In this document: piece after piece, positions 39,161 through 60,604 of the stretch
How the letters are laid out: the number at the start of each line of letters is the position of its first letter
How positions within the stretch are numbered: position 1 is the first letter of the stretch
DNA from: Bryobacteraceae bacterium
GTDB lineage: Bacteria; Acidobacteriota; Terriglobia; Bryobacterales; Bryobacteraceae
Direction of reading: 5' to 3'
DNA length: 64,000 nt
Assembly (NCBI GenBank): GCA_026002855.1
Contig: BPGD01000001.1
Location: 3,356,001-3,420,000 of the forward strand
Position numbers and translations under genes: made by a program
Notes under the pieces: generated by a model
The model's database searches: none
Told to the model about the DNA's origin: nothing
What the model saw: the letters and a program-made list of their open reading frames with translations, nothing else

Positions 39161-39196
39161 ATCAAAATCCTTTTTTGAACGGGGCCCCGTTTTGAC
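39161..39196 (-). repeat. Degenerate terminal CRISPR repeat (trailer end)
   Basis: This copy keeps TTTTTTGAACGGGGC and TTTGAC but differs from the consensus at about 8 of 36 positions. Degeneration marks the leader-distal, oldest end of an array, and agrees with a leader on the right. Confidence 0.9.
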
Positions 39197-39447
39197 CGTC
39201 AGGGTCCTCGCTCATCCTCACTTCATTATTGTCTCAATCCCCTTTTGAACGGGGCTCAGTTCTGACCTTCTTCTTCCAACATTTGTGTTACAAGGAAAGT
39301 CTCAATCCCCTTTTGAACGGGGCTCAGTTCTGACTGTCTGTACCGTATCTAGCACGAAGAGCGAAAGTCTCAATCCCCTTTTGAACGGGGCTCAGTTCTG
39401 ACTAAGGGTTTTTTACTTGATGGAAATATCGTGCTGTCTCAATCCCC

Positions 39448-39498: not shown

Positions 39499-40788
39499 CT
39501 ACGCCACCGCCTGCCGGGTGGCTGGCTGCGATTCCTCAAGAATCGCCTTGAGAGCCCACAGATCGCGATACCCCATGATCTTGCGAAAGGACTTCTCGAT
39601 TTCTAAAAACGCGGCCGCTGACCAGCGAGCCGCCATGCCGGGTCGCCAACGACAAACTCGGCGCGTGCGTTCGCGCACCCCGGAATGCGGGTTGTCCACG
39701 ATGTTGCTGGTGGCCAGGCAGCGGTGCAGCGAGCGCGGGATATCGAGCCGGTTGATGGTGAAACACTCCTCCAAGCCTTCCAGCAGCGCCGCGGCGGCAT
39801 CCGGATAATCGTGTTCCAGCCAGCCGGCGATCTGGCGAAACTTGGCCATGCCCTCGTCGGGTTTCAGCTTCCAGGCCGCCCGCATCAGCGATGCCGTCTG
39901 CGCTTGCTGCTGGCGGGGCAGCCGTCCCAGCACGTTGCGCAGTTTGTGATTCCTGCACCTTTGCACCGGGGTTTCGGCACCGAACACCGCGTTGATGGCC
40001 GTGCGCAGCGCTCTCGAGCCGTCGATGACGAACAGACGCCGGCGCTTCGGATCGACCCCGTGATCCACCAGATGCTGGAGCAGATCCTTGGCGGCTTCCG
40101 CATTCTCGGTGGCCCCTTCGCGCAACCCCAGCACGTGCTTGCGGCCCTCCCCATCCACCCCTACGGCGGCCAGCACGCATTGCTCGCCGAACTGCATCCC
40201 GTCGATGTAGATGATCAACAGATCCACCTGATCCCAGCGCCGCTCCATCAGCCGCTCCAGTGCCGCCTCCGAGGCCTCGATGCTTTCCCGACTCACCGTC
40301 GATTTCGACACGCCAACGGTCTCGGCCATCTCGGGCAACACCCGTTGGTAGCGGCGCGGAGAAACCCCGTTCAACAGGATCTCCAGCATCCGCTCGCCGG
40401 TCGCGCTGTCCCGCTGCATGGCCTGGTAGGCCGGCACCGCCACCTCCTTGTTCGGGCCCGGCCCTTTGCGGCGCAAGCGCGGCTTGTTCACCCGCAACTG
40501 GCGCTCTTTGAGAAACACTCTTCCCGGCTGCCTTCCGTGCCAGACCACGTCCTCCAGCCGTGCCTTGCCTTGCTGGGGCGCTCCCGCCACCTCCCGGGCC
40601 GAAAGCTCCAGCACGGCTTCCACGCTGGCCCGTCCCATGACCTCAATCAGCTCGTCAATCGCCAAGCGGCTCTGCTCGATCAACTCCAGCATCGGCAGAA
40701 GCGCCTGGCCGTGGCGGACCAAAAACTCGGCCAGCTTCCGTTCGTTCCCCTTCCCTTGCTTGTCAATCGTGTGATACCTTCGTTTCAC
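39499..40788 (-). CDS. IS256-family (mutator-type) transposase
   Basis: 429-aa DDE transposase. The first Asp lies in LLIIYIDGMQFGE, the second in RRRLFVIDGSRAL, then the mutator signature VQRCRNHKLRNVLGRLPR. The C-terminal part has SLHRCLATSNIVDNPHSGVRER and WSAAAFLEIEKSFRKIMGYRD, with the catalytic Glu in this region. Length and motifs are intact, with no frameshift, so the enzyme may be active. Confidence 0.94.
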   Translation of the reverse strand: MKRRYHTIDKQGKGNERKLAEFLVRHGQALLPMLELIEQSRLAIDELIEVMGRASVEAVLELSAREVAGAPQQGKARLEDVVWHGRQPGRVFLKERQLRVNKPRLRRKGPGPNKEVAVPAYQAMQRDSATGERMLEILLNGVSPRRYQRVLPEMAETVGVSKSTVSRESIEASEAALERLMERRWDQVDLLIIYIDGMQFGEQCVLAAVGVDGEGRKHVLGLREGATENAEAAKDLLQHLVDHGVDPKRRRLFVIDGSRALRTAINAVFGAETPVQRCRNHKLRNVLGRLPRQQQAQTASLMRAAWKLKPDEGMAKFRQIAGWLEHDYPDAAAALLEGLEECFTINRLDIPRSLHRCLATSNIVDNPHSGVRERTRRVCRWRPGMAARWSAAAFLEIEKSFRKIMGYRDLWALKAILEESQPATRQAVA

Positions 40789-43700
40789 GGCGGTTCTCCT
40801 TTTCCAGGTTTGATCACCCCGATTCTATTCAGAATCAAGGGCGAGCCGCCGCCTCAACTTTCAACTGCAGGTGCGGGACACCGTCTTTGAACGGGGCTCA
40901 GTTCTGACTATGACGCCCGCGTGCAGTACTACGACGGGGCGGGTCTCAATCCCCTTTTGAACGGGGCTCAGTTCTGACGGGCTGAGCAGCAGCTCTCGGT
41001 GCCAAAGGCGTGGTCTCAATCCCCTTTTGAACGGGGCTCAGTTCTGACCTACCGCGCCGCGCCGCTCCGGAGCATCCATCAGGTCTCAATCCCCTTTTGA
41101 ACGGGGCTCAGTTCTGACTGCCACAAATGTGGCAGGGCATTTCTAGAAATTGTCTCAATCCCCTTTTGAACGGGGCTCAGTTCTGACCCTGAATCCGGCC
41201 CGGAAGACCTATCAAGCCCCGGTCTCAATCCCCTTTTGAACGGGGCTCAGTTCTGACCTTCTTCTTCCAACATTTGTGTTACAAGGAAAGTCTCAATCCC
41301 CTTTTGAACGGGGCTCAGTTCTGACAGGGGCCGCAGTCCATAAGATGACTGTGGTAATGGGTCTCAATCCCCTTTTGAACGGGGCTCAGTTCTGACCTCG
41401 CCCGTCGCCAGGCCCGGCTGGGCCGGGATGTCTCAATCCCCTTTTGAACGGGGCTCAGTTCTGACGACTCGCGCGGCTGGCCGGTGATGGAGGTCGGGTC
41501 TCAATCCCCTTTTGAACGGGGCTCAGTTCTGACGGCAGCCCAGGCGTCGGCAAAAGCGCCTGGGTCCGTCTCAATCCCCTTTTGAACGGGGCTCAGTTCT
41601 GACCTGACCAAAACCTCACATATGCCCCACCTGCGTGTCTCAATCCCCTTTTGAACGGGGCTCAGTTCTGACAGTACTGGTTCCCCACTCTTGGTGTAGG
41701 TTTCTGGTCTCAATCCCCTTTTGAACGGGGCTCAGTTCTGACGCAGGGAGAAGCACCATGAAGAAGCCCAAAGGTCTCAATCCCCTTTTGAACGGGGCTC
41801 AGTTCTGACACTATTCGGCGGGCGAACTGGAGTTTGAGTTCTGTCTCAATCCCCTTTTGAACGGGGCTCAGTTCTGACCGCCCAAACCTACCATGTCAGG
41901 ACGCCGGAGGGGTCTCAATCCCCTTTTGAACGGGGCTCAGTTCTGACACGGAAGCACGCTCGATCGTGCGGAATCCGGCTGTCTCAATCCCCTTTTGAAC
42001 GGGGCTCAGTTCTGACACGGTCTAAGGACAACGTTGAACGGAACGACGTCTCAATCCCCTTTTGAACGGGGCTCAGTTCTGACAGTGACTTTAGCCTGTA
42101 TGGATTTACAGGCGATGTCTCAATCCCCTTTTGAACGGGGCTCAGTTCTGACGTCTACGTCCGGGCCTTCGACAGGGCCCATCAGTCTCAATCCCCTTTT
42201 GAACGGGGCTCAGTTCTGACGGAAAGGAAGCCCCATGTCCCTCACAGCAACCATGTCTCAATCCCCTTTTGAACGGGGCTCAGTTCTGACATAGCCCTAA
42301 TGGAGACGTTGTGGTACTTGACGTCTCAATCCCCTTTTGAACGGGGCTCAGTTCTGACTCCTCCTCCTCCTCTACAGGGCCCGCCGAAGCGGTCTCAATC
42401 CCCTTTTGAACGGGGCTCAGTTCTGACATGCCCCCGCCACACCAATCTTCTGGGTGTACTGGTCTCAATCCCCTTTTGAACGGGGCTCAGTTCTGACTCT
42501 CCTGCCTTCCTCATCGCCGAGGACGAGCAGTCTCAATCCCCTTTTGAACGGGGCTCAGTTCTGACTTCGGATGGGTCTGTCTTGTGGACGGCCCTCTGTC
42601 TCAATCCCCTTTTGAACGGGGCTCAGTTCTGACGCTGGTAAAGGGCCCGTCATGGGCCACATGGGGTCTCAATCCCCTTTTGAACGGGGCTCAGTTCTGA
42701 CTGACGCCATGTAGTGCAGGCACCCGGGTACCCCAGTCTCAATCCCCTTTTGAACGGGGCTCAGTTCTGACTGATCAACGTCACCCCCCATGTTATCTCC
42801 GTGTCTCAATCCCCTTTTGAACGGGGCTCAGTTCTGACGGACTGGATCCTCGGGGCTGAGGTGTGCAATGAGTCTCAATCCCCTTTTGAACGGGGCTCAG
42901 TTCTGACTCGCCATGGCCGTGGCTGAGCTCCTTCGCTCCGAGGTCTCAATCCCCTTTTGAACGGGGCTCAGTTCTGACTAACGGGCAGGAGCAAAAGTGG
43001 ATGGTGATCAACGTCTCAATCCCCTTTTGAACGGGGCTCAGTTCTGACCCCCGAGAAAGGAGAAGCCTATGATGACACCAGTCTCAATCCCCTTTTGAAC
43101 GGGGCTCAGTTCTGACGGCTTTTTCCGGGCCCTTTTGGTTTTTCCCGGGTCTCAATCCCCTTTTGAACGGGGCTCAGTTCTGACGCTCAAGATTCGCTCC
43201 GCGTCGCCATCATCGGTCTCAATCCCCTTTTGAACGGGGCTCAGTTCTGACCCCCGGACTGGGAGGGGGCTACGGACGAGGATAGGGTCTCAATCCCCTT
43301 TTGAACGGGGCTCAGTTCTGACAATGGTGGGAAGCAAGAGTTGGGGGAACGGCAATCGTCTCAATCCCCTTTTGAACGGGGCTCAGTTCTGACTTTTCAC
43401 CGCTTCATTAATCCAACTGCGGGGGGTCTCAATCCCCTTTTGAACGGGGCTCAGTTCTGACGCATGATCGCTGCCATCATGCTAAAACTCGGCCTGTCTC
43501 AATCCCCTTTTGAACGGGGCTCAGTTCTGACGGGTGAAAGGAGCTAACGATGAGCACCACCAAAGTCTCAATCCCCTTTTGAACGGGGCTCAGTTCTGAC
43601 CTAGTGGTCGAGGGAGAGTGGGGAGCCGAGTACTGTCTCAATCCCCTTTTGAACGGGGCTCAGTTCTGACGCCGCCCGGGGGCCAAAAACGGTAGCATAG

Positions 43701-46687
43701 AAGGTCTCAATCCCCTTTTGAACGGGGCTCAGTTCTGACTTGGTGGGGCCCACGCCGCCACGGCGAGTACGGTCTCAATCCCCTTTTGAACGGGGCTCAG
43801 TTCTGACACAGACCTTCCGGTAGCCCTTACGCTGTGGTGGGTCTCAATCCCCTTTTGAACGGGGCTCAGTTCTGACACTGCCGTACTAGAGAATGCTGTA
43901 CGAACGAAAGTGTCTCAATCCCCTTTTGAACGGGGCTCAGTTCTGACAGGGGCCCCGGAAAGGAGAAAGTGGATGGAAGAGGTCTCAATCCCCTTTTGAA
44001 CGGGGCTCAGTTCTGACACAAAGCCGTCCACACTCCACCGTCTGGCCCGGTCTCAATCCCCTTTTGAACGGGGCTCAGTTCTGACTTGCGTGCGCCGCAC
44101 ATCCCGATCACACTTATCGGTCTCAATCCCCTTTTGAACGGGGCTCAGTTCTGACCAGCGCAGCATGAATTATGGAACATTGCCGCCGAGTCTCAATCCC
44201 CTTTTGAACGGGGCTCAGTTCTGACTGTCTCTGAGAGCGAAGCGGATAGTATCCGACGGTCTCAATCCCCTTTTGAACGGGGCTCAGTTCTGACGCGACG
44301 ACCGCACGACTGTGGCTCGTGCGCTGGGTCTCAATCCCCTTTTGAACGGGGCTCAGTTCTGACGAGGAACCGGAGGAAATGGAGGAGGAGGAAGAGTCTC
44401 AATCCCCTTTTGAACGGGGCTCAGTTCTGACTACATCGTCCGCATCGAGGAGGAAGACTCACGTCTCAATCCCCTTTTGAACGGGGCTCAGTTCTGACTG
44501 GCCAGACGGATAACCCGTCTGGATTCAAAAGTCTCAATCCCCTTTTGAACGGGGCTCAGTTCTGACGGACCTTGCGCGGATCGCCCTCGGTCATTCCCGT
44601 CTCAATCCCCTTTTGAACGGGGCTCAGTTCTGACCAGGGGCCCGGGTGGGGCGTGGGGGCCCGTGCTGTCTCAATCCCCTTTTGAACGGGGCTCAGTTCT
44701 GACAGGCCACGCGCCGGAAAGGAGAAAGTAGGCAGATGTCTCAATCCCCTTTTGAACGGGGCTCAGTTCTGACGTGGAAGGCACCGTCTACAGGGCATCC
44801 CTCGTCTCAATCCCCTTTTGAACGGGGCTCAGTTCTGACTCTGGTCATGGCTTGACTTTCTCGAACCACCGGCGTCTCAATCCCCTTTTGAACGGGGCTC
44901 AGTTCTGACACGAAGAATACAGCCGGGCGGGCAGTTGCCCGGTCTCAATCCCCTTTTGAACGGGGCTCAGTTCTGACGCCTGAGGCGGAGGAGTGGTTCA
45001 ACGGGATTGGTCTCAATCCCCTTTTGAACGGGGCTCAGTTCTGACCTTGGACGCCTTCCGGCAAGAAGTCTTGGCCCAGTCTCAATCCCCTTTTGAACGG
45101 GGCTCAGTTCTGACCCTTTGGGTGGTTCTAGCGTCCAAGTTTGTAGTCTCAATCCCCTTTTGAACGGGGCTCAGTTCTGACCGCAGAAACGTGGAATGTT
45201 GCGGCCGACGCAGTCTCAATCCCCTTTTGAACGGGGCTCAGTTCTGACAGCTCGCTCGCCGCAGTGGGCGCCCCGTCGACGAGTCTCAATCCCCTTTTGA
45301 ACGGGGCTCAGTTCTGACGAAGGCACTGCTCTACGAGGGAGCCCCGCTCGGTCTCAATCCCCTTTTGAACGGGGCTCAGTTCTGACAGGCCTGCCTTGGC
45401 AGCTACTGCTACGGGAGGTCTCAATCCCCTTTTGAACGGGGCTCAGTTCTGACAAAGTTCCATTTCTGGATACCCGAGACGATCAGTCTCAATCCCCTTT
45501 TGAACGGGGCTCAGTTCTGACCGAATGGATCCGTATCTCTCCAGTGCGTGGACGGTCTCAATCCCCTTTTGAACGGGGCTCAGTTCTGACCGCAAGACTA
45601 TGGAACGCGAAGTCCAAGCCGCAGTCTCAATCCCCTTTTGAACGGGGCTCAGTTCTGACGATAATCAGGGAAGGCGAATCGTACAGAGCGATTCGGTCTC
45701 AATCCCCTTTTGAACGGGGCTCAGTTCTGACGTGCTCGCATCCATTCGGGAGCCCGCGGACTTCTTGTCTCAATCCCCTTTTGAACGGGGCTCAGTTCTG
45801 ACGCTCGCGCCGGTGATGGAGAGGATGGCGGCTGGTGTCTCAATCCCCTTTTGAACGGGGCTCAGTTCTGACCTGCGGCTATGCGTGATTGATGGTTCTC
45901 TGGTCTCAATCCCCTTTTGAACGGGGCTCAGTTCTGACGATCCGCGAAAAGCTCGTCCGCGCTAGGGCGCGCGTCTCAATCCCCTTTTGAACGGGGCTCA
46001 GTTCTGACACTCAAGGTCTCGCATTTCTTGGCGCGCCTATGTCTCAATCCCCTTTTGAACGGGGCTCAGTTCTGACTGAGGGCCCGCGCATAACAGAAAG
46101 GAGATCGGTCTCAATCCCCTTTTGAACGGGGCTCAGTTCTGACCCATTAACCTGGCGGCTAAAACGGTAACCATCGTCTCAATCCCCTTTTGAACGGGGC
46201 TCAGTTCTGACCCCGTGTCGCTGGTCATCAAGCGCGCGTCCGGGTCTCAATCCCCTTTTGAACGGGGCTCAGTTCTGACCGATGGGCGAGTTGTGCCCAT
46301 CAGCGCGGAAGGTCTCAATCCCCTTTTGAACGGGGCTCAGTTCTGACAGAACCACCTGGCAAACCAGCCCGGGGCTTCCGTCTCAATCCCCTTTTGAACG
46401 GGGCTCAGTTCTGACCTCGGGGCATACGGCGACCCCGCCTTCATCCCGGTCTCAATCCCCTTTTGAACGGGGCTCAGTTCTGACCGGGCGTCCGAATCAG
46501 GGTGGGGATGTCCTCAGTCTCAATCCCCTTTTGAACGGGGCTCAGTTCTGACGCCGCGGGCTGGACGGGATACACGCATCAGTGGTCTCAATCCCCTTTT
46601 GAACGGGGCTCAGTTCTGACGCCGCGGGCTGGACGGATACACGCATCAGTGGTCTCAATCCCCTTTTGAACGGGGCTCAGTTCTGAC

Positions 46688-47200
46688 GATGGACGCTACG
46701 TGTCTATTGAACTGTGGTCAGTCTCAATCCCCTTTTGAACGGGGCTCAGTTCTGACTCTCTAACCCGTGGGCCACGGACTCTTACACGTGTCTCAATCCC
46801 CTTTTGAACGGGGCTCAGTTCTGACCCCGGCCGCGGCGGTACCGCGCCGCCGCCGCGGTCTCAATCCCCTTTTGAACGGGGCTCAGTTCTGACCGGTCGC
46901 TGACGCGGAGCGCGCGCTCTGCGAGACGTCTCAATCCCCTTTTGAACGGGGCTCAGTTCTGACAAGGAAGGACAATGAGATTGGTCAACGTCACGCGTCT
47001 CAATCCCCTTTTGAACGGGGCTCAGTTCTGACGATGGACGCTACGTGTCTATTGAACTGTGGTCAGTCTCAATCCCCTTTTGAACGGGGCTCAGTTCTGA
47101 CTCTCTGACCCGTGGGCCACGGACTCTTACCGTGTCTCAATCCCCTTTTGAACGGGGCTCAGTTCTGACCCCGGCGCGGCGGTACCGCGCCGCCGCCGCG
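46688..47200. repeat. Three-spacer block duplicated within the array, copies diverged by small indels
   Basis: Spacers at 46688, 46757 and 46826 recur in the same order at 47033, 47102 and 47170, separated by two unrelated spacers. The first pair is identical; the second has one substitution and a 1-nt difference near the end; the third lacks one C. Confidence 0.9.
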
Positions 47201-50200
47201 GTCTCAATCCCCTTTTGAACGGGGCTCAGTTCTGACAGGAGCATGCTGACACTGTACGACATCACTGCGTCTCAATCCCCTTTTGAACGGGGCTCAGTTC
47301 TGACGCCGGGAAGGAGCAAGCTTATGATGACCCAAGGTCTCAATCCCCTTTTGAACGGGGCTCAGTTCTGACTCATGGGCATGGAGAAGAGAATGCACTT
47401 CCTGTCTCAATCCCCTTTTGAACGGGGCTCAGTTCTGACTGCCTTCCTCCGGAAGCCACTTCGTGCTCTGTCTCAATCCCCTTTTGAACGGGGCTCAGTT
47501 CTGACGCTCCAAACGGGTGAAAGAAGTCAGGCCCGCCTGGTCTCAATCCCCTTTTGAACGGGGCTCAGTTCTGACGCTGGTCCGGAAGTGTTGACGAGGC
47601 AGTGGAGTCTCAATCCCCTTTTGAACGGGGCTCAGTTCTGACTTTCTCGCCGCCGCCCCGAGCTGTTGCACCAGGTCTCAATCCCCTTTTGAACGGGGCT
47701 CAGTTCTGACCGAGTGGGAGGCGGAAATCGCCCGTCTCGAAGCGTCTCAATCCCCTTTTGAACGGGGCTCAGTTCTGACACTGTACTGGAAGCGTAGACG
47801 GCAACACAAGTCTCAATCCCCTTTTGAACGGGGCTCAGTTCTGACGCACGGTGTCGCGGTGGCGCAGTTCCCGACCACGGTCTCAATCCCCTTTTGAACG
47901 GGGCTCAGTTCTGACCGAGTGGGAGGCGGAAATCGCCCGTCTCGAAGCGTCTCAATCCCCTTTTGAACGGGGCTCAGTTCTGACGAGTGTGGCGCATTGA
48001 CTCGACCGCTACACTGGGTCTCAATCCCCTTTTGAACGGGGCTCAGTTCTGACGCACGGGACAACAGATTGGGCTCATCATCATCGTCTCAATCCCCTTT
48101 TGAACGGGGCTCAGTTCTGACTGGTGAACTCGATGACTGCATCCGGGTAGAGGGTCTCAATCCCCTTTTGAACGGGGCTCAGTTCTGACGTCGCGGGGTC
48201 GCCGACTATGGAACGCGACATAAGTCTCAATCCCCTTTTGAACGGGGCTCAGTTCTGACGACAAGCAGATGGAAAATGACACGAAGTGGTGTCTCAATCC
48301 CCTTTTGAACGGGGCTCAGTTCTGACACCGTTCGCCTCAATCAGGGAGCCAAGTGATGTCTCAATCCCCTTTTGAACGGGGCTCAGTTCTGACATCATCG
48401 AGACACCATGACTGCGATGCCTCGTCTCAATCCCCTTTTGAACGGGGCTCAGTTCTGACCTCGCATGGCCATCTCCTCGTAGCTGGGATGCGGCGTCTCA
48501 ATCCCCTTTTGAACGGGGCTCAGTTCTGACCATCGAAGTTCGTGGGAACGCTGGACTGCCCGGTCTCAATCCCCTTTTGAACGGGGCTCAGTTCTGACCT
48601 GGACTGCCCGGCGGCAGAGTTTGTGATCCGGGTCTCAATCCCCTTTTGAACGGGGCTCAGTTCTGACGTGAGCCCGAAGGCACTGCTCTACGAGGGAGCG
48701 TCTCAATCCCCTTTTGAACGGGGCTCAGTTCTGACCGGATGGACTGGGCAAGATCGCCGAAATGCCCTGGTCTCAATCCCCTTTTGAACGGGGCTCAGTT
48801 CTGACGTGAGCCCGAAGGCACTGCTCTACGAGGGAGCCGTCTCAATCCCCTTTTGAACGGGGCTCAGTTCTGACCGGATGGACATGGGCAAGATCGCCGA
48901 AATGCCCTGGTCTCAATCCCCTTTTGAACGGGGCTCAGTTCTGACTCAGGAGGAGTAGGAGCATGCTGACACTGTACGAGTCTCAATCCCCTTTTGAACG
49001 GGGCTCAGTTCTGACCGCTGGGCCCCTCGAGAATGAGACAAGGACGAAGGTCTCAATCCCCTTTTGAACGGGGCTCAGTTCTGACTAGTACAACACAACC
49101 GGCGTGACACCGCGGGAGCGTCTCAATCCCCTTTTGAACGGGGCTCAGTTCTGACTCCCCTGCCTTCCTCATTGCCGAGGACGAGCAGGGTCTCAATCCC
49201 CTTTTGAACGGGGCTCAGTTCTGACCATCCCTCGAGGGATGTAGGGACGAGTTCGTGTCTCAATCCCCTTTTGAACGGGGCTCAGTTCTGACTGTTGTCC
49301 AAGGACAGCATCACGACGGTACCCGGTCTCAATCCCCTTTTGAACGGGGCTCAGTTCTGACAACTCGCGGGCGGACGTCGTGGTGCTTGACGAAGTCTCA
49401 ATCCCCTTTTGAACGGGGCTCAGTTCTGACGGTTGACGAGAAAGTCCATGCAGTAGAGACGGTCTCAATCCCCTTTTGAACGGGGCTCAGTTCTGACAGT
49501 CGAAGGCACCGTCTATCGGGCATCCCTTGAGTCTCAATCCCCTTTTGAACGGGGCTCAGTTCTGACCCGCTGTCTGTGATAGCCGCGGCCAAGTAGTGGC
49601 GTCTCAATCCCCTTTTGAACGGGGCTCAGTTCTGACCGGGCGCGGAGCCTGATCGCGGCGTTCTCCGTCTCAATCCCCTTTTGAACGGGGCTCAGTTCTG
49701 ACCCGGGAGTGGGGAAGTCCGCCCGCTTGGCGGTCTCAATCCCCTTTTGAACGGGGCTCAGTTCTGACGTTCCACGGGGTGCTCGCCGTGGATCCCGGGT
49801 CTCAATCCCCTTTTGAACGGGGCTCAGTTCTGACAAGTGTTTGACGAGGCAGTGGATAGCCTCATCTGTCTCAATCCCCTTTTGAACGGGGCTCAGTTCT
49901 GACCCACGGGCTGGAGCAGAAGATCCGGGACTCCTGTCTCAATCCCCTTTTGAACGGGGCTCAGTTCTGACTATGGCTAAAGCAACATCACCACCAATTC
50001 CGTCTCAATCCCCTTTTGAACGGGGCTCAGTTCTGACCGGGAAGCTCGTCCATCGTCGCGCCGATGGGCGGTCTCAATCCCCTTTTGAACGGGGCTCAGT
50101 TCTGACGGTGAGGTAGGCGAAGTGTCTTCGGACGGGGCCGGTCTCAATCCCCTTTTGAACGGGGCTCAGTTCTGACTCGATCTTGCGCCGAACCTGACTG

Positions 50201-53200
50201 CAGAGGAATGTCTCAATCCCCTTTTGAACGGGGCTCAGTTCTGACCGCCCACCGGAGCGCCGCGGAGCGCGCAAGCGCGTCTCAATCCCCTTTTGAACGG
50301 GGCTCAGTTCTGACCGAGAGAATGTTCTCTCAAACGCGGCTCCCATGTCTCAATCCCCTTTTGAACGGGGCTCAGTTCTGACTCCGTCCGAGAAACTTGT
50401 CCACGCTAGGGCGGTCTCAATCCCCTTTTGAACGGGGCTCAGTTCTGACACGGCCACCTTGACACTCGTACCTACTGGATGTAGTCTCAATCCCCTTTTG
50501 AACGGGGCTCAGTTCTGACTCGGCAACGTTGCCGAAGCCGCACGGCAATACGCTGTCTCAATCCCCTTTTGAACGGGGCTCAGTTCTGACCGACCAGTCC
50601 CTGCAATATGCGCCCCTGCCTGGGTCTCAATCCCCTTTTGAACGGGGCTCAGTTCTGACGCGGCCGAACAGGCATACACATGTGAGAGTGTATGTCTCAA
50701 TCCCCTTTTGAACGGGGCTCAGTTCTGACCATGTTGCCCTAACGCCTGAAGAGAGACTGTCTCAATCCCCTTTTGAACGGGGCTCAGTTCTGACTCGAGC
50801 GCACCGGTCTCTCGTCTTCTGAACGAGTCTCAATCCCCTTTTGAACGGGGCTCAGTTCTGACGCGGACGGCGGTGCGCATGGTACCAGCGCCGCCGTCTC
50901 AATCCCCTTTTGAACGGGGCTCAGTTCTGACCTCGGCGGGCGGCGGCTGAGCCCCCGCTGCCGCGTCTCAATCCCCTTTTGAACGGGGCTCAGTTCTGAC
51001 TACTCCAGCGTTAGTGTGCATTTCCCGGATGGGTCTCAATCCCCTTTTGAACGGGGCTCAGTTCTGACAACGATGCTGACGAAGGCCCCGAGTGGGCCAC
51101 GGTCTCAATCCCCTTTTGAACGGGGCTCAGTTCTGACATGGCATGACGCATACCTACGCATGCCGTCATCGTCTCAATCCCCTTTTGAACGGGGCTCAGT
51201 TCTGACTCGTCTCCCTGACGATTCATCATCGTGGCGGGTCTCAATCCCCTTTTGAACGGGGCTCAGTTCTGACTCATGGATGCGTCCCTACTGGCGATCC
51301 ACCACAGTCTCAATCCCCTTTTGAACGGGGCTCAGTTCTGACACAGCGACAGTGCTACTGTAGCCTGGGATCGAGTCTCAATCCCCTTTTGAACGGGGCT
51401 CAGTTCTGACGATGAGGCGGCGCGACAGGTGCAGGAAGTAATGTCTCAATCCCCTTTTGAACGGGGCTCAGTTCTGACGAGCCTTCGAGGAGAGTGACCC
51501 CTCCTAGGGGTCTCAATCCCCTTTTGAACGGGGCTCAGTTCTGACATTGCCTGCCTCCGGAAGCCACTTCGTTCTTGTCTCAATCCCCTTTTGAACGGGG
51601 CTCAGTTCTGACATGCGCCGAAGGTGGCGCATTGACTCCACCGTGTCTCAATCCCCTTTTGAACGGGGCTCAGTTCTGACGGAAGGTCGATACAATCTGC
51701 GGAACGCGATTGTCTCAATCCCCTTTTGAACGGGGCTCAGTTCTGACGCCGCAGAAGTGAATAACGGGCACTGGTTCTCGTCTCAATCCCCTTTTGAACG
51801 GGGCTCAGTTCTGACCCCCCGTTCCCCCCGGGTGCCGGATGGCACGCGTCTCAATCCCCTTTTGAACGGGGCTCAGTTCTGACGCACGGACGCGGCGGGC
51901 CGCGAGACATGGCCCGGTCTCAATCCCCTTTTGAACGGGGCTCAGTTCTGACGAGCTCTCCGCGGCTCAACGCCAGGCATCTAGGTCTCAATCCCCTTTT
52001 GAACGGGGCTCAGTTCTGACGAGTCACTGCTCGCAGAACCTGAGTCTCCGCTCGGTCTCAATCCCCTTTTGAACGGGGCTCAGTTCTGACCAGGGCGTGG
52101 AGGAAAGATGAAGCACTATCTAGTCTCAATCCCCTTTTGAACGGGGCTCAGTTCTGACCATCTATGAGGTTGGATGGAAGCTGGCCGCGAGTCTCAATCC
52201 CCTTTTGAACGGGGCTCAGTTCTGACACACGCGGGCTGTGAACTCGTTCCTGTCGTGGCTGTCTCAATCCCCTTTTGAACGGGGCTCAGTTCTGACCTGA
52301 GGAGACGCACAGTCTCCGTCCTCCGACTCGTCTCAATCCCCTTTTGAACGGGGCTCAGTTCTGACCTGACGGCGACCCGCTCATGGCTCGCCGCGCCGGT
52401 CTCAATCCCCTTTTGAACGGGGCTCAGTTCTGACGAGCATCGAATGTCGGACGAGAAGATTCAAGCAGTGTCTCAATCCCCTTTTGAACGGGGCTCAGTT
52501 CTGACGACGGCGCTACGGACGAGGATCGGGAGTACCTGTCTCAATCCCCTTTTGAACGGGGCTCAGTTCTGACACAAGATCATCGTGTGCCCCGAGGACA
52601 AAACGGGGTCTCAATCCCCTTTTGAACGGGGCTCAGTTCTGACTCCGCGCTTGCCTCCAAGAACGTCTACCTCTGTCTCAATCCCCTTTTGAACGGGGCT
52701 CAGTTCTGACGGATCGCTTGCTGGCGATCGCAGAATCCGTCCTCGGTCTCAATCCCCTTTTGAACGGGGCTCAGTTCTGACCCGACGACGACGGCACGCG
52801 GCAAGTGGGCTTCCGTCTCAATCCCCTTTTGAACGGGGCTCAGTTCTGACACCATTACCATGCATGGTTACTTCGCATACCTGTCTCAATCCCCTTTTGA
52901 ACGGGGCTCAGTTCTGACCGCCGACGGAGATCGTGCCGGAGGAGCGGGTCGAGTCTCAATCCCCTTTTGAACGGGGCTCAGTTCTGACGGATCCGTATGA
53001 GGATCCGACCCGGCAGCGAGTCTCAATCCCCTTTTGAACGGGGCTCAGTTCTGACTTTTTAGGTGTGTCGTGGTTTCGGACGTTGGCATGTCTCAATCCC
53101 CTTTTGAACGGGGCTCAGTTCTGACACCGGCTGGGCATACGTCGTCGCCACGGCGCCGGTCTCAATCCCCTTTTGAACGGGGCTCAGTTCTGACCCTAAT

Positions 53201-55222
53201 GGCGGCGAAATGCCCGGCTCGTCTGGGTCTCAATCCCCTTTTGAACGGGGCTCAGTTCTGACTCGTCGTCGGGAACCACGCACACTTCTCCAAGTCTCAA
53301 TCCCCTTTTGAACGGGGCTCAGTTCTGACGGAGAAATACAGGGCATGGAGAACATATGCTGAGTCTCAATCCCCTTTTGAACGGGGCTCAGTTCTGACCG
53401 GACCGCCGCCCGCCACGGGCTGCGGCTGGCGGTCTCAATCCCCTTTTGAACGGGGCTCAGTTCTGACCTTGCCCGCCTCCCCGAGTGGGAGGCGGAGCTC
53501 TGTCTCAATCCCCTTTTGAACGGGGCTCAGTTCTGACAAATGAGATTGGTCAACCTCACGCCGCACGAGATGTCTCAATCCCCTTTTGAACGGGGCTCAG
53601 TTCTGACCCGTGCGGGGCGTGGATCGGGGTCAGGCTCGCGCGTCTCAATCCCCTTTTGAACGGGGCTCAGTTCTGACCGCGAGGCCATCGCACGTACATA
53701 CAACCTGGGCGTCTCAATCCCCTTTTGAACGGGGCTCAGTTCTGACTTTCAACAGGTTCCCATTCTCATACACGTCAACGTCTCAATCCCCTTTTGAACG
53801 GGGCTCAGTTCTGACCCTGGGCTTCTCGGCTTGCTCAGGCAGAACGGGGTCTCAATCCCCTTTTGAACGGGGCTCAGTTCTGACGCATATCGAGGATATC
53901 CGTGCAGCTGATCGCGTCTCAATCCCCTTTTGAACGGGGCTCAGTTCTGACCACTGCCGCTGCTGCGGCAGGGCATTTTGGGAGTCTCAATCCCCTTTTG
54001 AACGGGGCTCAGTTCTGACTACGTGCAGGTGCATCAAGCCCCGACCAGCGGTCTCAATCCCCTTTTGAACGGGGCTCAGTTCTGACGCATCAGTGGCGGT
54101 ATCCCGTCGCCGCTCACCTGTCTCAATCCCCTTTTGAACGGGGCTCAGTTCTGACCGTTCAAATGGATGAGGAGGAACGAGCCTTCGAGTCTCAATCCCC
54201 TTTTGAACGGGGCTCAGTTCTGACGGAACGTGAAGTAAAGTACCTCGAGCTGGTGGTGTCTCAATCCCCTTTTGAACGGGGCTCAGTTCTGACTGGCGCA
54301 GATGGAGGATGCACAGAGCTAGCCCGGGTCTCAATCCCCTTTTGAACGGGGCTCAGTTCTGACGTTGCTGATGAGTAAGGGCTACCACTTTTCAGGTCTC
54401 AATCCCCTTTTGAACGGGGCTCAGTTCTGACTAGGGACACCGGTACACAAAATGACGTTCGTCGAGTCTCAATCCCCTTTTGAACGGGGCTCAGTTCTGA
54501 CAAAGGAGCATAGAATGGTTGAGGGAAAGATTCGTCTCAATCCCCTTTTGAACGGGGCTCAGTTCTGACAGGACGTCCTTGAGCCTATCCTGGCCTTTGT
54601 TGTCTCAATCCCCTTTTGAACGGGGCTCAGTTCTGACGAGAAAGGAGAGAAAGCATGAAGCTGTATAGCGTCTCAATCCCCTTTTGAACGGGGCTCAGTT
54701 CTGACACTATGTGTCCATCGACCTCTGGGCGGAGACACGTCTCAATCCCCTTTTGAACGGGGCTCAGTTCTGACTGCTGTCCAGAGGGGGAGTAATCCCC
54801 CTCTGAGTCTCAATCCCCTTTTGAACGGGGCTCAGTTCTGACGATGGGTGGCGGAAACGCGTGCTGGCGCGCTGGGTCTCAATCCCCTTTTGAACGGGGC
54901 TCAGTTCTGACTTGGATGTCGTCCGGGACGACATCTTGGCGCAGAGTCTCAATCCCCTTTTGAACGGGGCTCAGTTCTGACTCAGTTGGTGGTTGAGGAA
55001 GAGCTTGGGGCAAGGGTCTCAATCCCCTTTTGAACGGGGCTCAGTTCTGACTTAACTCCCGGGGAGACGTTGTGGTGCTTGACGAGTCTCAATCCCCTTT
55101 TGAACGGGGCTCAGTTCTGACCTGCCCAGCGGCGGAGTTTGTCATCCGACAGAGTCTCAATCCCCTTTTGAACGGGGCTCAGTTCTGACTACATGGGCAT
55201 GGAGGAATTTATGGTTGAGAAA

Positions 55223-55498
55223 GTCTCAATCCCCTTTTGAACGGGGCTCAGTTCTGACGCACGAAGACCGCCTCCGCGTGGTTATCGCCACGTCTCAATC
55301 CCCTTTTGAACGGGGCTCAGTTCTGACGCGGCGGGACAACAACGGCGCGGATGCGCCGAAGTCTCAATCCCCTTTTGAACGGGGCTCAGTTCTGACGCAC
55401 GAAGACCGCCTCCGCGTGGTTATCGCCACGTCTCAATCCCCTTTTGAACGGGGCTCAGTTCTGACGCGGCGGGACAACAACGGCGCGGATGCGCCGAA
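55223..55498. repeat. Exact 138-bp tandem duplication of two repeat-spacer units
   Basis: Units at 55223-55360 and 55361-55498 are identical: two spacers (starting GCACGAAGACC and GCGGCGGGACA) repeated in order. Repeat-mediated unequal crossing-over or replication slippage is the simplest cause. Confidence 0.95.
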
Positions 55499-58400
55499 GT
55501 CTCAATCCCCTTTTGAACGGGGCTCAGTTCTGACACCGGCCTGCCGACGCGTGTGATCGGCGTGTACCGTCTCAATCCCCTTTTGAACGGGGCTCAGTTC
55601 TGACACTATCCGGCGGGCGAACTGGAATTCGAATTCTGTCTCAATCCCCTTTTGAACGGGGCTCAGTTCTGACCTGAGGCAGAGGAATGGTTCAATGGGA
55701 TTGCCGTCTCAATCCCCTTTTGAACGGGGCTCAGTTCTGACATGATCGCGGTTTCTGCCAGGCATGGGCATTTGTCTCAATCCCCTTTTGAACGGGGCTC
55801 AGTTCTGACAGCGGGCCCCCGGGAAAGGAGAAAGTGGCATGCGTCTCAATCCCCTTTTGAACGGGGCTCAGTTCTGATTCGCAGATTGAGGTGGCTAACA
55901 CCCTCAAGCGGTCTCAATCCCCTTTTGAACGGGGCTCAGTTCTGACGCTGCACATGGCGACCTCGAACTCCGCACCTATTGTCTCAATCCCCTTTTGAAC
56001 GGGGCTCAGTTCTGACGGGAAGTCTCGTCGGACGGGGCCGACGACCCGTGTCTCAATCCCCTTTTGAACGGGGCTCAGTTCTGACCATCCAGAGGAGGAG
56101 TAATCCTTCTCTGAGTGTCTCAATCCCCTTTTGAACGGGGCTCAGTTCTGACTTGCGACTCGCGCCGCGTCGCCATCATCGACGCGTCTCAATCCCCTTT
56201 TGAACGGGGCTCAGTTCTGACGCCAGAGTCTGAGTATTCATGTATCAGTGTCCAGTCTCAATCCCCTTTTGAACGGGGCTCAGTTCTGACCCTAGGGAAA
56301 GGAGCAACACGCATGGCAATTTAGTCTCAATCCCCTTTTGAACGGGGCTCAGTTCTGACACGAGTGGCTCGTTCAAATGGACGAAGAGGAACGGTCTCAA
56401 TCCCCTTTTGAACGGGGCTCAGTTCTGACCCTAGAGGAAAGGGAAGTGAGGTACCTTGAACTGGTCTCAATCCCCTTTTGAACGGGGCTCAGTTCTGACC
56501 TGGGCGCCCCGTCGATGAGGCCCGGCTCCGGCAGGTCTCAATCCCCTTTTGAACGGGGCTCAGTTCTGACTGCCTGAAGCGGAGGAATGGTTCAACGGTT
56601 TGGTCTCAATCCCCTTTTGAACGGGGCTCAGTTCTGACCTTTGACGGCCCCGCAACGCCCATCTTTTGGGCGTCTCAATCCCCTTTTGAACGGGGCTCAG
56701 TTCTGACCTGCCGGACGCTGCGGAACGCGCGTAGCGCGCGTTAAGTCTCAATCCCCTTTTGAACGGGGCTCAGTTCTGACCCGGCCCGGGCGACCTACTG
56801 AGCCCCGAGGATCAGTCTCAATCCCCTTTTGAACGGGGCTCAGTTCTGACCCGGGAGCCCGCGGACTTCCTGGGTCTCCCGTTTGTCTCAATCCCCTTTT
56901 GAACGGGGCTCAGTTCTGACTGGGAGTCTGTCGGAATTCGCTACTCTCTGCCCTGTCTCAATCCCCTTTTGAACGGGGCTCAGTTCTGACAGGCGCGGAT
57001 CCTCCGCCGCTACGAGACCCTCGAGTCTCAATCCCCTTTTGAACGGGGCTCAGTTCTGACCGTGCCTCGACGGCATAGCGAGGTGGTGCCGACTGTCTCA
57101 ATCCCCTTTTGAACGGGGCTCAGTTCTGACTGTGGCCCGGGGCAAAGAGGGCGAAGGAAGTGGGTCTCAATCCCCTTTTGAACGGGGCTCAGTTCTGACT
57201 GATATAAAGCAAGGATCTTTGAAAGGAAAATAACGGTCTCAATCCCCTTTTGAACGGGGCTCAGTTCTGACCGGTGCTAGCGTCCATCCGGGAGCCGAGT
57301 GATTGTCTCAATCCCCTTTTGAACGGGGCTCAGTTCTGACGTCCTAATCTGGGGCGCCCCAGGCGTCGGAAAAAGTCTCAATCCCCTTTTGAACGGGGCT
57401 CAGTTCTGACAGGTTCGGCCGATGCTGCAGGAAGCAAGGATGCGTCTCAATCCCCTTTTGAACGGGGCTCAGTTCTGACGCCGAAAATCCGTTGCATGCG
57501 TGGAAGAGCTTGTCTCAATCCCCTTTTGAACGGGGCTCAGTTCTGACACTTCCCTCGAGGGATGCAGGGACGAGTTCTGTGTCTCAATCCCCTTTTGAAC
57601 GGGGCTCAGTTCTGACTCTGTCCTCGCTGCGGTTTCGAGCGATCTATCGAGTCTCAATCCCCTTTTGAACGGGGCTCAGTTCTGACGGCGGCCTGCGGCC
57701 TCGACCATAGCACGGTCTCTGTCTCAATCCCCTTTTGAACGGGGCTCAGTTCTGACGGTCGCGGGATCGCCGACTATGGAAAGACAGATCAGTCTCAATC
57801 CCCTTTTGAACGGGGCTCAGTTCTGACGGAGTTTGCCATCAACCTGATCTCTTCTTTCGCGTCTCAATCCCCTTTTGAACGGGGCTCAGTTCTGACTCAC
57901 TGGCTCCGAACCTCGGAGCTGGTGACTGGTCTCAATCCCCTTTTGAACGGGGCTCAGTTCTGACCAGCGACTACCTGAAGGACTGGCTCGAGAAGCTGTC
58001 TCAATCCCCTTTTGAACGGGGCTCAGTTCTGACGCAAATCTGCCTGGGTCTCTCACCTTGCCAATCGGTCTCAATCCCCTTTTGAACGGGGCTCAGTTCT
58101 GACGGCAAGGGCTGCCCAATCTGCGACTACTTCGCGTCTCAATCCCCTTTTGAACGGGGCTCAGTTCTGACCAATCAGGCTCCGGAGAGTAGATTCTCTC
58201 CGGAGTCTCAATCCCCTTTTGAACGGGGCTCAGTTCTGACAAAGCGTGCCAAAGCACGCAGAATCCGGCCCGGAGTCTCAATCCCCTTTTGAACGGGGCT
58301 CAGTTCTGACCCGGCCCGGAAGACCAATCAGGCTCCGGAGAGTAGTCTCAATCCCCTTTTGAACGGGGCTCAGTTCTGACGCGGTATATCAAGATGCTGA

Positions 58401-60445
58401 TGCCACAAGCAGCCGTCTCAATCCCCTTTTGAACGGGGCTCAGTTCTGACGACGTCCTGCGGCGCATCACTGCCGGCGCTCCTAGTCTCAATCCCCTTTT
58501 GAACGGGGCTCAGTTCTGACCAGGGAGCCCGCGGACTTTCTCGGTCTCCCAATCCGTCTCAATCCCCTTTTGAACGGGGCTCAGTTCTGACTCTCCGGAG
58601 CTTTTTCATGACTTCTTTGAGTTTGTCTCAATCCCCTTTTGAACGGGGCTCAGTTCTGACTCTGGGAGAATGTGATATTGAGAATGCGTTATGTCTCAAT
58701 CCCCTTTTGAACGGGGCTCAGTTCTGACAAAGCGTGCTCGCTAGCACGCTACATCCGGCCGTCTCAATCCCCTTTTGAACGGGGCTCAGTTCTGACATGG
58801 GTTTCGTGGTTGCGCTCCCTCGACCTTCCGTCTCAATCCCCTTTTGAACGGGGCTCAGTTCTGACAAATAAAAGGTGAAGATGGAACCTGGCAAGAGTCT
58901 CAATCCCCTTTTGAACGGGGCTCAGTTCTGACGGCAAGTAGAGGCATCCTATTTTTAGACGAGCTGTCTCAATCCCCTTTTGAACGGGGCTCAGTTCTGA
59001 CGTAGGCGCGCCAGGAAATGCGGCTCCGGGAGTAGTCTCAATCCCCTTTTGAACGGGGCTCAGTTCTGACAAGCGCCATGTTCGCCGCCGTCCGCGGGAA
59101 GCGTCTCAATCCCCTTTTGAACGGGGCTCAGTTCTGACAGGTCTTTGAGAACAGAATATGACGCATCCGGGTCTCAATCCCCTTTTGAACGGGGCTCAGT
59201 TCTGACCTTTGACGGCCCCGCAACGCCGATTTTCCTGGTGTCTCAATCCCCTTTTGAACGGGGCTCAGTTCTGACTCCCGTCGCAGCCCACCTGCGCGGC
59301 GTCTGCATGTCTCAATCCCCTTTTGAACGGGGCTCAGTTCTGACCACTGCCGCTCATGCGGCCGTGCCTTCCTTGAGGTGTCTCAATCCCCTTTTGAACG
59401 GGGCTCAGTTCTGACGTGGTGTCGGACGTGCGGATGCTATAGCGAAGGCGTCTCAATCCCCTTTTGAACGGGGCTCAGTTCTGACCTCCTCGGGTAGCAT
59501 CCGCGCCGCGGCGGTACCGTCTCAATCCCCTTTTGAACGGGGCTCAGTTCTGACAATACAAGGGCAGGAGAAAGGTATGCTCTATAAGTCTCAATCCCCT
59601 TTTGAACGGGGCTCAGTTCTGACCCCGCAACGCCGATTTTTCTCGTGTATTGGTGGTCTCAATCCCCTTTTGAACGGGGCTCAGTTCTGACGCGGCGGGA
59701 TAACAACGGCGCGGATGCGCCGAGTCTCAATCCCCTTTTGAACGGGGCTCAGTTCTGACCGATGGGTGTTGAAATCTGGCACTGCCGCCTTGTCTCAATC
59801 CCCTTTTGAACGGGGCTCAGTTCTGACGGCGGCGAAGTCCGCATCCGGAGGCTCGAAAAAGTCTCAATCCCCTTTTGAACGGGGCTCAGTTCTGACGGCT
59901 ATGATTATCAACCTCACACCTCATGCAAGTCTCAATCCCCTTTTGAACGGGGCTCAGTTCTGACTGTGCTTGCGTCACTCATCTCGACGTTTGCCGTCTC
60001 AATCCCCTTTTGAACGGGGCTCAGTTCTGACGTGACGGATTTTCACATTTCGTTCGCACCATAGTCTCAATCCCCTTTTGAACGGGGCTCAGTTCTGACG
60101 GGGGGCCGAAGGGGGACATTCTCCTCCGTGCCGTCTCAATCCCCTTTTGAACGGGGCTCAGTTCTGACCTGGACGTCTTCGCTCACGGAACCTACTTCAA
60201 AGTCTCAATCCCCTTTTGAACGGGGCTCAGTTCTGACGCAGTTCCAACGTATCAAAGCAACGGATGGTCGGTCTCAATCCCCTTTTGAACGGGGCTCAGT
60301 TCTGACATTTTCGTCCCATCGAAACATGTGATGCTGTGTCGTCTCAATCCCCTTTTGAACGGGGCTCAGTTCTGACCGTGAATACGGCCGGTTTTGAGTT
60401 CGCTGCGCTGTCTCAATCCCCTTTTGAACGGGGCTCAGTTCTGAC

Positions 60446-60604
60446 GCCCCCCTCGGTCAACAGGCCTGGAATCAATGCGTTGCAGGGAGCGTTTCCAAAA
60501 AATTTCTTCATGACAAAAGTGAGCGAAATTGTTTTGACCTCCGATCCCAGGGGCCGCTTGTAACTCATTGATTTTCTTATGCCACACAATCCCGCACTTG
60601 TCAA
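60446..60604 (-). promoter_or_regulatory. CRISPR leader with sigma70-like promoter
   Basis: Read on the minus strand, TTGACA (60604-60599) and CATAAG (60581-60576) are separated by 17 nt, a good -35/-10 pair pointing into the array. Transcription would start near 60569, about 124 nt before the first repeat. The stretch between is AT-richer than its surroundings (for example AAAAAATTTCTTCAT, 60495-60510), as expected of a leader with integration signals. No protein is predicted. Confidence 0.7.

What the first reader, a model, noticed from the sequence alone, without database searches (positions are those of the whole stretch)
40909..60445. Spacers are almost all mRNA-sense on the plus strand, so crRNAs would be antisense to transcripts
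The array is transcribed leftward (repeat fold, leader side). Wherever a spacer has a recognisable frame, it is on the plus strand: for example SPGVGKSAWV (41534), APATPIFWVYW (42428), SPAFLIAEDEQ (42498), PEAEEWFNG (44978), VQMDEEERAF (54156). In homologous spacer pairs the differences fall at third codon positions only when read in this orientation. Such bias is expected for RNA-targeting type III systems, through selection or through RT-Cas1 acquisition from RNA, not for DNA-targeting type I.
Basis: partly seen in the sequence, partly recalled or inferred. Interest (0 to 1): 0.92.

Follow-up and report, generated by a model that had tools for sequence, protein, structure and literature searches.

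The report
Type III CRISPR array against mRNA

Summary
The main observation holds. The array runs from 39161 to 60445, is split near its old end by a Mutator-family transposase, has 287 spacers (282 distinct) and is transcribed leftward. No protospacer could be mapped, so strand was tested indirectly. Homologous spacers share orientation in 32 of 33 clusters. Shine-Dalgarno plus start-codon motifs lie on plus 13 times and on minus twice; shuffles give 2. Synonymous changes favour plus in 12 clusters, minus in 2, and leave 7 undecided. Codon statistics lean to plus but are weak. The I-G array of the same genome shows no significant bias. The repeat belongs with a complete III-A locus; in a same-genus genome a variant of it adjoins that locus. 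The genome has no RVT_1 reverse transcriptase, so RT-Cas1 is out. Two spacers face the other way; one perfectly matches a host gene in the orientation that cannot pair with its mRNA. This fits DNA-level uptake followed by selection, as shown in Thermus. Strand bias of type III arrays is known. Less known is the conserved cas2-cas1-cas1'-cas2' module, whose second Cas1 is diverged.

The parts
40909..60445 (-). Main part of the CRISPR array, 36-nt repeats and 29-37 nt spacers, transcribed leftward
39161..39402 (-). Old (trailer) end of the array: degenerate end repeat 39161-39196, then three exact repeats and three spacers
39499..40788 (-). Mutator-family transposase gene (PF00872) that splits the array; the repeat at 40873-40908 lost its first part
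60446..60545 (-). Leader side; right flank resembles, by eye, those of three same-genus arrays
59828..59860 (-). Spacer with 33 of 33 match to a chromosomal PHP-domain gene, in the orientation that cannot pair with its mRNA; 9th from the leader
59002..59034 (-). Wrong-way spacer: its complement encodes SRSRISWRAY, as the spacer at 46009 does on plus; 21st from the leader
46009..46040 (+). Partner of 59002: same ten residues on the plus strand with seven synonymous differences
43049..43080 (+). Example of a spacer with Shine-Dalgarno site and start codon on plus
54638..54669 (+). Example of a spacer with Shine-Dalgarno site and start codon on plus
55810..55842 (+). Example of a spacer with Shine-Dalgarno site and start codon on plus

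Best explanation
This is the spacer store of a type III-A CRISPR-Cas system whose Cas10-Csm complex senses viral RNA. Spacers are probably taken from viral DNA, in either orientation, by a Cas1-Cas2 integrase without reverse transcriptase. A spacer protects only if its crRNA pairs with a viral message, so cells that gained such a spacer survived and the array grew mainly by protective spacers. Shown here: the orientation bias (indirectly), the leader side, the linked complete III-A locus, no RT in the genome. Inferred: uptake from DNA, selection as the cause, RNA sensing by this particular complex.
For: Bias by several indirect tests; no significant bias in the I-G array of the same genome. 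Three same-genus arrays with a one-base repeat variant lean the same way: strong SD 3 v 0, loose 7 v 0, purine-rich 70 v 23 of 99, p=1e-6. III-A locus: Csm1 E=2e-161, Csm2-5; Cas6 by profile in the G001 copy, own copy read; Cas10 with HD and GGDD. Repeat and full-length III-A Cas10 occur together in G000, G001, G004 and were found in neither G002 nor G003, which are drafts of 180 and 90 contigs. In G004 the array ends about 1 kb from cas2-cas1. No RT. A host-derived spacer lies in the harmless orientation and one viral-type spacer faces the wrong way, so both orientations can be stored. Artamonova et al. 2020 (PMC7515739, abstract and passages) showed this course of events in Thermus without RT.
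Against: No protospacer found, so no target gene or transcript was seen. The wrong-way evidence is two spacers. The homology test covers 82 of 287 spacers and may favour repeatedly selected targets. If young spacers are unselected, the leader end should be less biased: the codon score of the 20 youngest is lowest (0.06, se 0.33; other bins 0.10-0.57) but not significantly, the 10 youngest score 0.65, and the trend is nil (r=0.06). One sibling array (40 spacers) searched against its own genome gave no host match outside CRISPR arrays, so the host-spacer argument rests on one case. A bias near 97% leaves little room for unselected passengers.
Confidence: 0.72

Rival explanations
1. Strand choice at uptake without RT: the integrase, which here comes with a diverged second Cas1 and a second Cas2, is asymmetric or coupled to transcription and inserts spacers in the mRNA-pairing orientation.
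For: cas2-cas1-cas1'-cas2' module in the III-A locus, also in three other Acidobacteriota families; the bias looks near complete.
Against: The host-gene spacer and the spacer at 59002 are the other way round. In Thermus, uptake without selection is from both strands (PMC7515739); in S. thermophilus III-A, by the review PMC9048733 (passages), uptake prefers the useless strand.
Confidence: 0.13
2. RT-Cas1 acquisition from RNA.
For: It would give transcript-derived spacers; none specific to this genome.
Against: No RVT_1 match in the genome while the search rings in 3 of 14 controls; Cas1 has no RT part. RT uptake by itself need not orient spacers: type III-B of Marinomonas takes them in either orientation (PMC5576922, abstract start in a search listing).
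Confidence: 0.02
3. The bias comes from the viruses or from the tests: small genomes with one-directional genes, replication polarity, or codon and purine skew that only look like coding-strand bias.
For: No protospacer mapped; codon models are weak and overlap between arrays; open-frame counts show no strand difference.
Against: Orientation agreement of homologous spacers (32 of 33 clusters) needs no coding model; SD-start motifs on minus are at background; I-G shows neither.
Confidence: 0.13

Closest known systems
Thermus thermophilus type III-A/III-B arrays (Artamonova et al. 2020, PMC7515739; abstract and passages seen)
   Same: No RT; phage spacers almost all complementary to transcripts; host spacers on either strand
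   Different: There the bias was produced in a phage experiment; here it is read from a natural array of 287 spacers with unknown targets
Coding-strand preference of type III spacers across genomes (Vink et al. 2021, PMC8482600; abstract and passages seen)
   Same: Type III spacers prefer the mRNA-pairing strand, e.g. 88% in Moraxella III-B
   Different: They mapped protospacers; here the preference is inferred from the spacers themselves and looks stronger
RT-Cas1 type III systems (Marinomonas and others; search listings only)
   Same: Type III effector
   Different: RT present there, absent here
PADLOC PDLC01185 'Cas1, diverged variant, second in the loci'
   Same: Best PADLOC match of the second Cas1 here (E=1.5e-11)
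   Different: A profile name only; searches gave no account of its function

Membership tests
Type III-A CRISPR-Cas | Cas10/Csm1 with HD and GGDD motifs | tested here: met
   TIGR02578 539 bits, cut-off 170; GAFLHDSGKF and VYAGGDDLLL
Type III-A CRISPR-Cas | Csm2, Csm3, Csm4, Csm5 | tested here: met
   TIGR01870, TIGR02582, TIGR01903, TIGR01899 all over cut-off
Type III-A CRISPR-Cas | Cas6 for repeat processing | tested here: met
   PF10040 49 bits in the G001 orthologue; own orthologue read across two adjacent stretches, not itself scanned
Type III-A CRISPR-Cas | The window array belongs to this locus | tested here: met
   Adjacent in G004 with a one-base repeat variant; repeat and full-length Cas10 found together in 3 of 5 genus genomes and neither in 2; in the window genome they lie about 310 kb apart
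Type III-A CRISPR-Cas | crRNA-guided RNA recognition in the cell | not testable with these tools
   Needs RNA-seq and interference assays
RT-Cas1 type III system | Reverse transcriptase domain fused or next to Cas1 | tested here: not met
   No PF00078 in G000; Cas1 327 aa matches Cas1 families only
Type I-G array | Repeat of the I-G array | tested here: not met
   I-G has its own array with another repeat
Strand-biased type III array | Spacers antisense to mRNA by mapped protospacers | tested here: inconclusive
   No protospacer mapped; indirect tests support it

The most novel reading that the evidence does not exclude
The twin adaptation module (Cas1 with Cas2 plus a Cas1 paralogue lacking the catalytic set with its own Cas2) forms an asymmetric integrase that orients prespacers relative to transcription, so that type III arrays fill with mRNA-pairing spacers without reverse transcriptase; selection only tidies up.
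Probability: 0.1. Interest if true: 0.88.

Novelty: new member of a known kind. Interest (0 to 1): 0.45.

Why it matters
The array records nearly 300 spacers kept mainly in one orientation, in an organism without reverse transcriptase and with a DNA-targeting array in the same cell for comparison. It supports the view that type III strand bias is made by selection, and the opposite-facing host spacer is a case that this view predicts. The conserved second Cas1-Cas2 pair in the same locus is a concrete alternative that can be tested.

Tried and rejected
Protospacer mapping. Three slices covering 40909-60445 (not the three oldest spacers) against 50,697 phage records: 16, 4 and 0 records, E 2-9, chance level. 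Five IMG/VR pattern scans: four without a hit, one 16-mer with 30 contigs. Against those 30 contigs none of 287 window, 101 same-genus and 74 I-G spacers matched at 7-8 mismatches or fewer; one I-G spacer matched a control phage at 7 of 28. Array against 101 family genomes: weak, repetitive or 6-mismatch matches only, besides the array itself. No I-G spacer clearly matches the own genome outside its array (best other E=0.04).

Signals that failed. Open-frame counting: 2.34 plus, 2.37 minus per spacer. Codon models are weak: known sense is read as 0.58-1.00. Age trend along the array: none. No homologous spacers between window and G004 or G001 arrays.

Rows dropped; 5 identical pairs, 5 block-copy pairs that I listed by hand, 1 palindromic opposite pair; pairs with fewer than two differences in the compared stretch; this removed the 46009/59002 pair, whose reading rests. 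For I-G I set aside identical and near-identical neighbouring copies. One search used distinct spacers only (282, 64, 99).

Full report
What is there. The window holds one CRISPR array of a 36-nt repeat, 286 exact copies in one orientation, in a single-contig genome of 4.44 Mb. There are 287 spacers, 282 distinct. The leader is on the right: that flank resembles, by eye, the right flanks of three arrays of same-genus genome G004, and the degenerate repeat is at the left. The repeat read leftward ends in ATTGAGAC. So the crRNAs are the reverse complement of the plus-strand spacers.

Is the bias real? None of the following needs a protospacer. First, homologous spacers: above anything seen in two shuffles (13.6), 33 clusters of 82 spacers remain after removing copies, and 32 have a single orientation; at the lower threshold of 13.7 it is 31 of 33. 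This does not depend on gene finding. In the I-G array, copies aside, the two pairs at that level split 1:1. Second, Shine-Dalgarno site plus start codon: 13 plus and 2 minus of 282 with a shuffle mean of 2.0; looser 27 and 7 with a shuffle mean of 8.2. The minus counts are thus background. Sense 33-mers of three phages carry the strong motif at 0.1-2.2%, two to three times the antisense rate, against 4.6% here. Third, synonymous changes: 12 clusters favour plus, 2 minus, 7 fit both; by pair 14, 4 and 9 of 27. A stricter local version gave 11 plus, 2 minus, 15 ties of 28 pairs. One of the two minus clusters (54775/56086) is a hairpin that may not code. Fourth, codon statistics: 177 of 287 prefer plus, 61.7%, as known sense fragments do (62.7%); but strong calls are 9 plus and 6 minus, more minus than the calibration rates of 1.8% and 0.2% predict. 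A second model gives 0.67-0.77 plus with log-likelihood gains of 4.8-10.0 over 0.5; known-sense phage controls give 0.58-1.00; the I-G array gives 0.61-0.64 with wide intervals, so this model does not separate the two arrays. Fifth, purine excess: 158 v 109 spacers, p=0.003; G004 arrays 70 v 23, p=1e-6; I-G 34 v 29. Open-frame counts show nothing. Arrays beside the related modules in L139 and L141 (41 spacers) have the strong motif 3 v 0 in the expected orientation; purine excess there is 25 v 12 in all, but 5 v 6 in L139.

Exceptions. The spacers at 46009 and 59002 encode the same ten residues (SRSRISWRAY) with seven synonymous differences, but on opposite strands. The spacer at 59828 is a 33 of 33 match to a chromosomal PHP-domain gene; its crRNA has the sequence of the mRNA and cannot pair with it. 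They are 21st and 9th from the leader; codon scores along the array show no significant trend.

Which system? About 310 kb away lies a complete III-A locus: two Cas2, Cas1 and two CARF genes, a second Cas1-like protein, Cas6, Cas10, Csm2-5 and a further CARF gene. The genome also has III-B, a Csx11-type locus, a III-A-like locus with a short Cas10 in which I found neither HD nor GGDD, and I-G with its own 75-repeat array. I did not search the whole genome for further arrays. Of five same-genus genomes, the three with this repeat have the full-length III-A Cas10; in the two without the repeat (drafts) only short or distant Cas10 matches were found. In G004 an array with a one-base repeat variant ends about 1 kb from the orthologous cas2-cas1 genes.

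RT-Cas1? PF00078 finds nothing in this genome, G001 or G004, although it rings in 3 of 14 controls. Of four other genomes with the twin module that were tried, one (G248) has an RVT_1 gene, on a contig other than the one with the module. The RNA-uptake route is dropped for this genome.

Mechanism. The most likely account is the one shown for Thermus type III without RT: spacers enter in both orientations, and infection keeps the cells whose crRNA pairs with transcripts (PMC7515739, abstract and passages). Type III preference for the coding strand across genomes is also in print (PMC8482600, abstract and passages). The host-matching spacer in the harmless orientation fits, but it is one case; a 40-spacer array of G004 had no host match in its own genome outside arrays. 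If uptake is symmetric and the wrong-way share is about 3%, roughly 94% of the spacers were kept by selection; this is inference from the cluster count.

The twin adaptation module. The order cas2-cas1-cas1'-cas2' is kept in the three genus members and in an 'Arcobacter'-labelled contig. The phylum search gave 10 of 396 genomes, this one included. Of the other nine, five show the whole module (L129-L132; in L135 the second Cas1 was found by profile only), one is cut by the contig end (L134), and three look like ordinary single Cas1 genes (L133, L136, L137). Type III genes adjoin it in L138, L139 and L141; none were seen in the short stretches L140, L142 and L143 by similarity to the III-A proteins. 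Cas1 keeps E160, H225 and D237 in 10 of 10 aligned sequences, one of them the I-G Cas4-Cas1. In 10 second-Cas1 sequences only E222 of the acidic residues is invariant, D17 and D191 nearly so, and no histidine is kept. Its model (pLDDT 88.6) matches Cas1 chains: Z 14.2 over 239 residues at rmsd 15.5, domains placed differently, and Z 12.5 over 158 residues at rmsd 2.9 for the C-terminal domain. PADLOC already lists 'Cas1, diverged variant, second in the loci'. Searches, and passages of PMC12669027, gave no account of its function. That E-H-D is the catalytic set of Cas1 is recalled.

Verdict. The phenomenon is known; this is a large natural example with a useful internal comparison and an interesting adaptation module.

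Noticed in passing
L029:12997-15310 (G000:C1:3724996-3727309); also L049/L061, L062, L127, L129-L132, L138-L141, L143: Conserved order cas2-cas1-cas1'-cas2'; the second Cas1 has a Cas1 fold by prediction but no conserved E-H-D set; best PADLOC match PDLC01185.
   Followed up: partly
window 39499-40788: Mutator-family transposase gene inserted in the old end of the array; the neighbouring repeat is cut.
   Followed up: partly
window 54775/56086 and 49226/57548: Homologous spacers that are hairpin-like (e.g. CAGAGGGGGAGTAATCCCCCTCTG); perhaps terminators, or hairpins favoured at uptake.
   Followed up: no
window 42772, 46964, 53538, 59897: Four spacers share an (I/L)(V/I)N(V/L)T stretch on plus, one of them after a Shine-Dalgarno site; it recalls the start of a small phage protein (from memory, not tested).
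   Followed up: no
window array, spacers with Shine-Dalgarno plus start codon: They are 13 of 282 (4.6%) against 0.1-2.2% of sense 33-mers in three control phages; start regions may be favoured.
   Followed up: partly
L032:9583-14746: III-A-like locus with a 465-aa Cas10 in which no HD or GGDD motif was found; similar Cas10 matches in G001-G004.
   Followed up: no
G000:C1:227666-228124, 4320491-4320949 and 466644-466946: Weak Cas1-profile matches away from the CRISPR loci, the first two with identical scores; possible solo Cas1-like genes.
   Followed up: no
L028:4520-9931: I-G array in which several spacers occur two to four times side by side or nearly so.
   Followed up: no
L061:12469-15198: In G004 the second CARF gene of the III-A locus appears in two pieces about 1.4 kb apart.
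   Followed up: no
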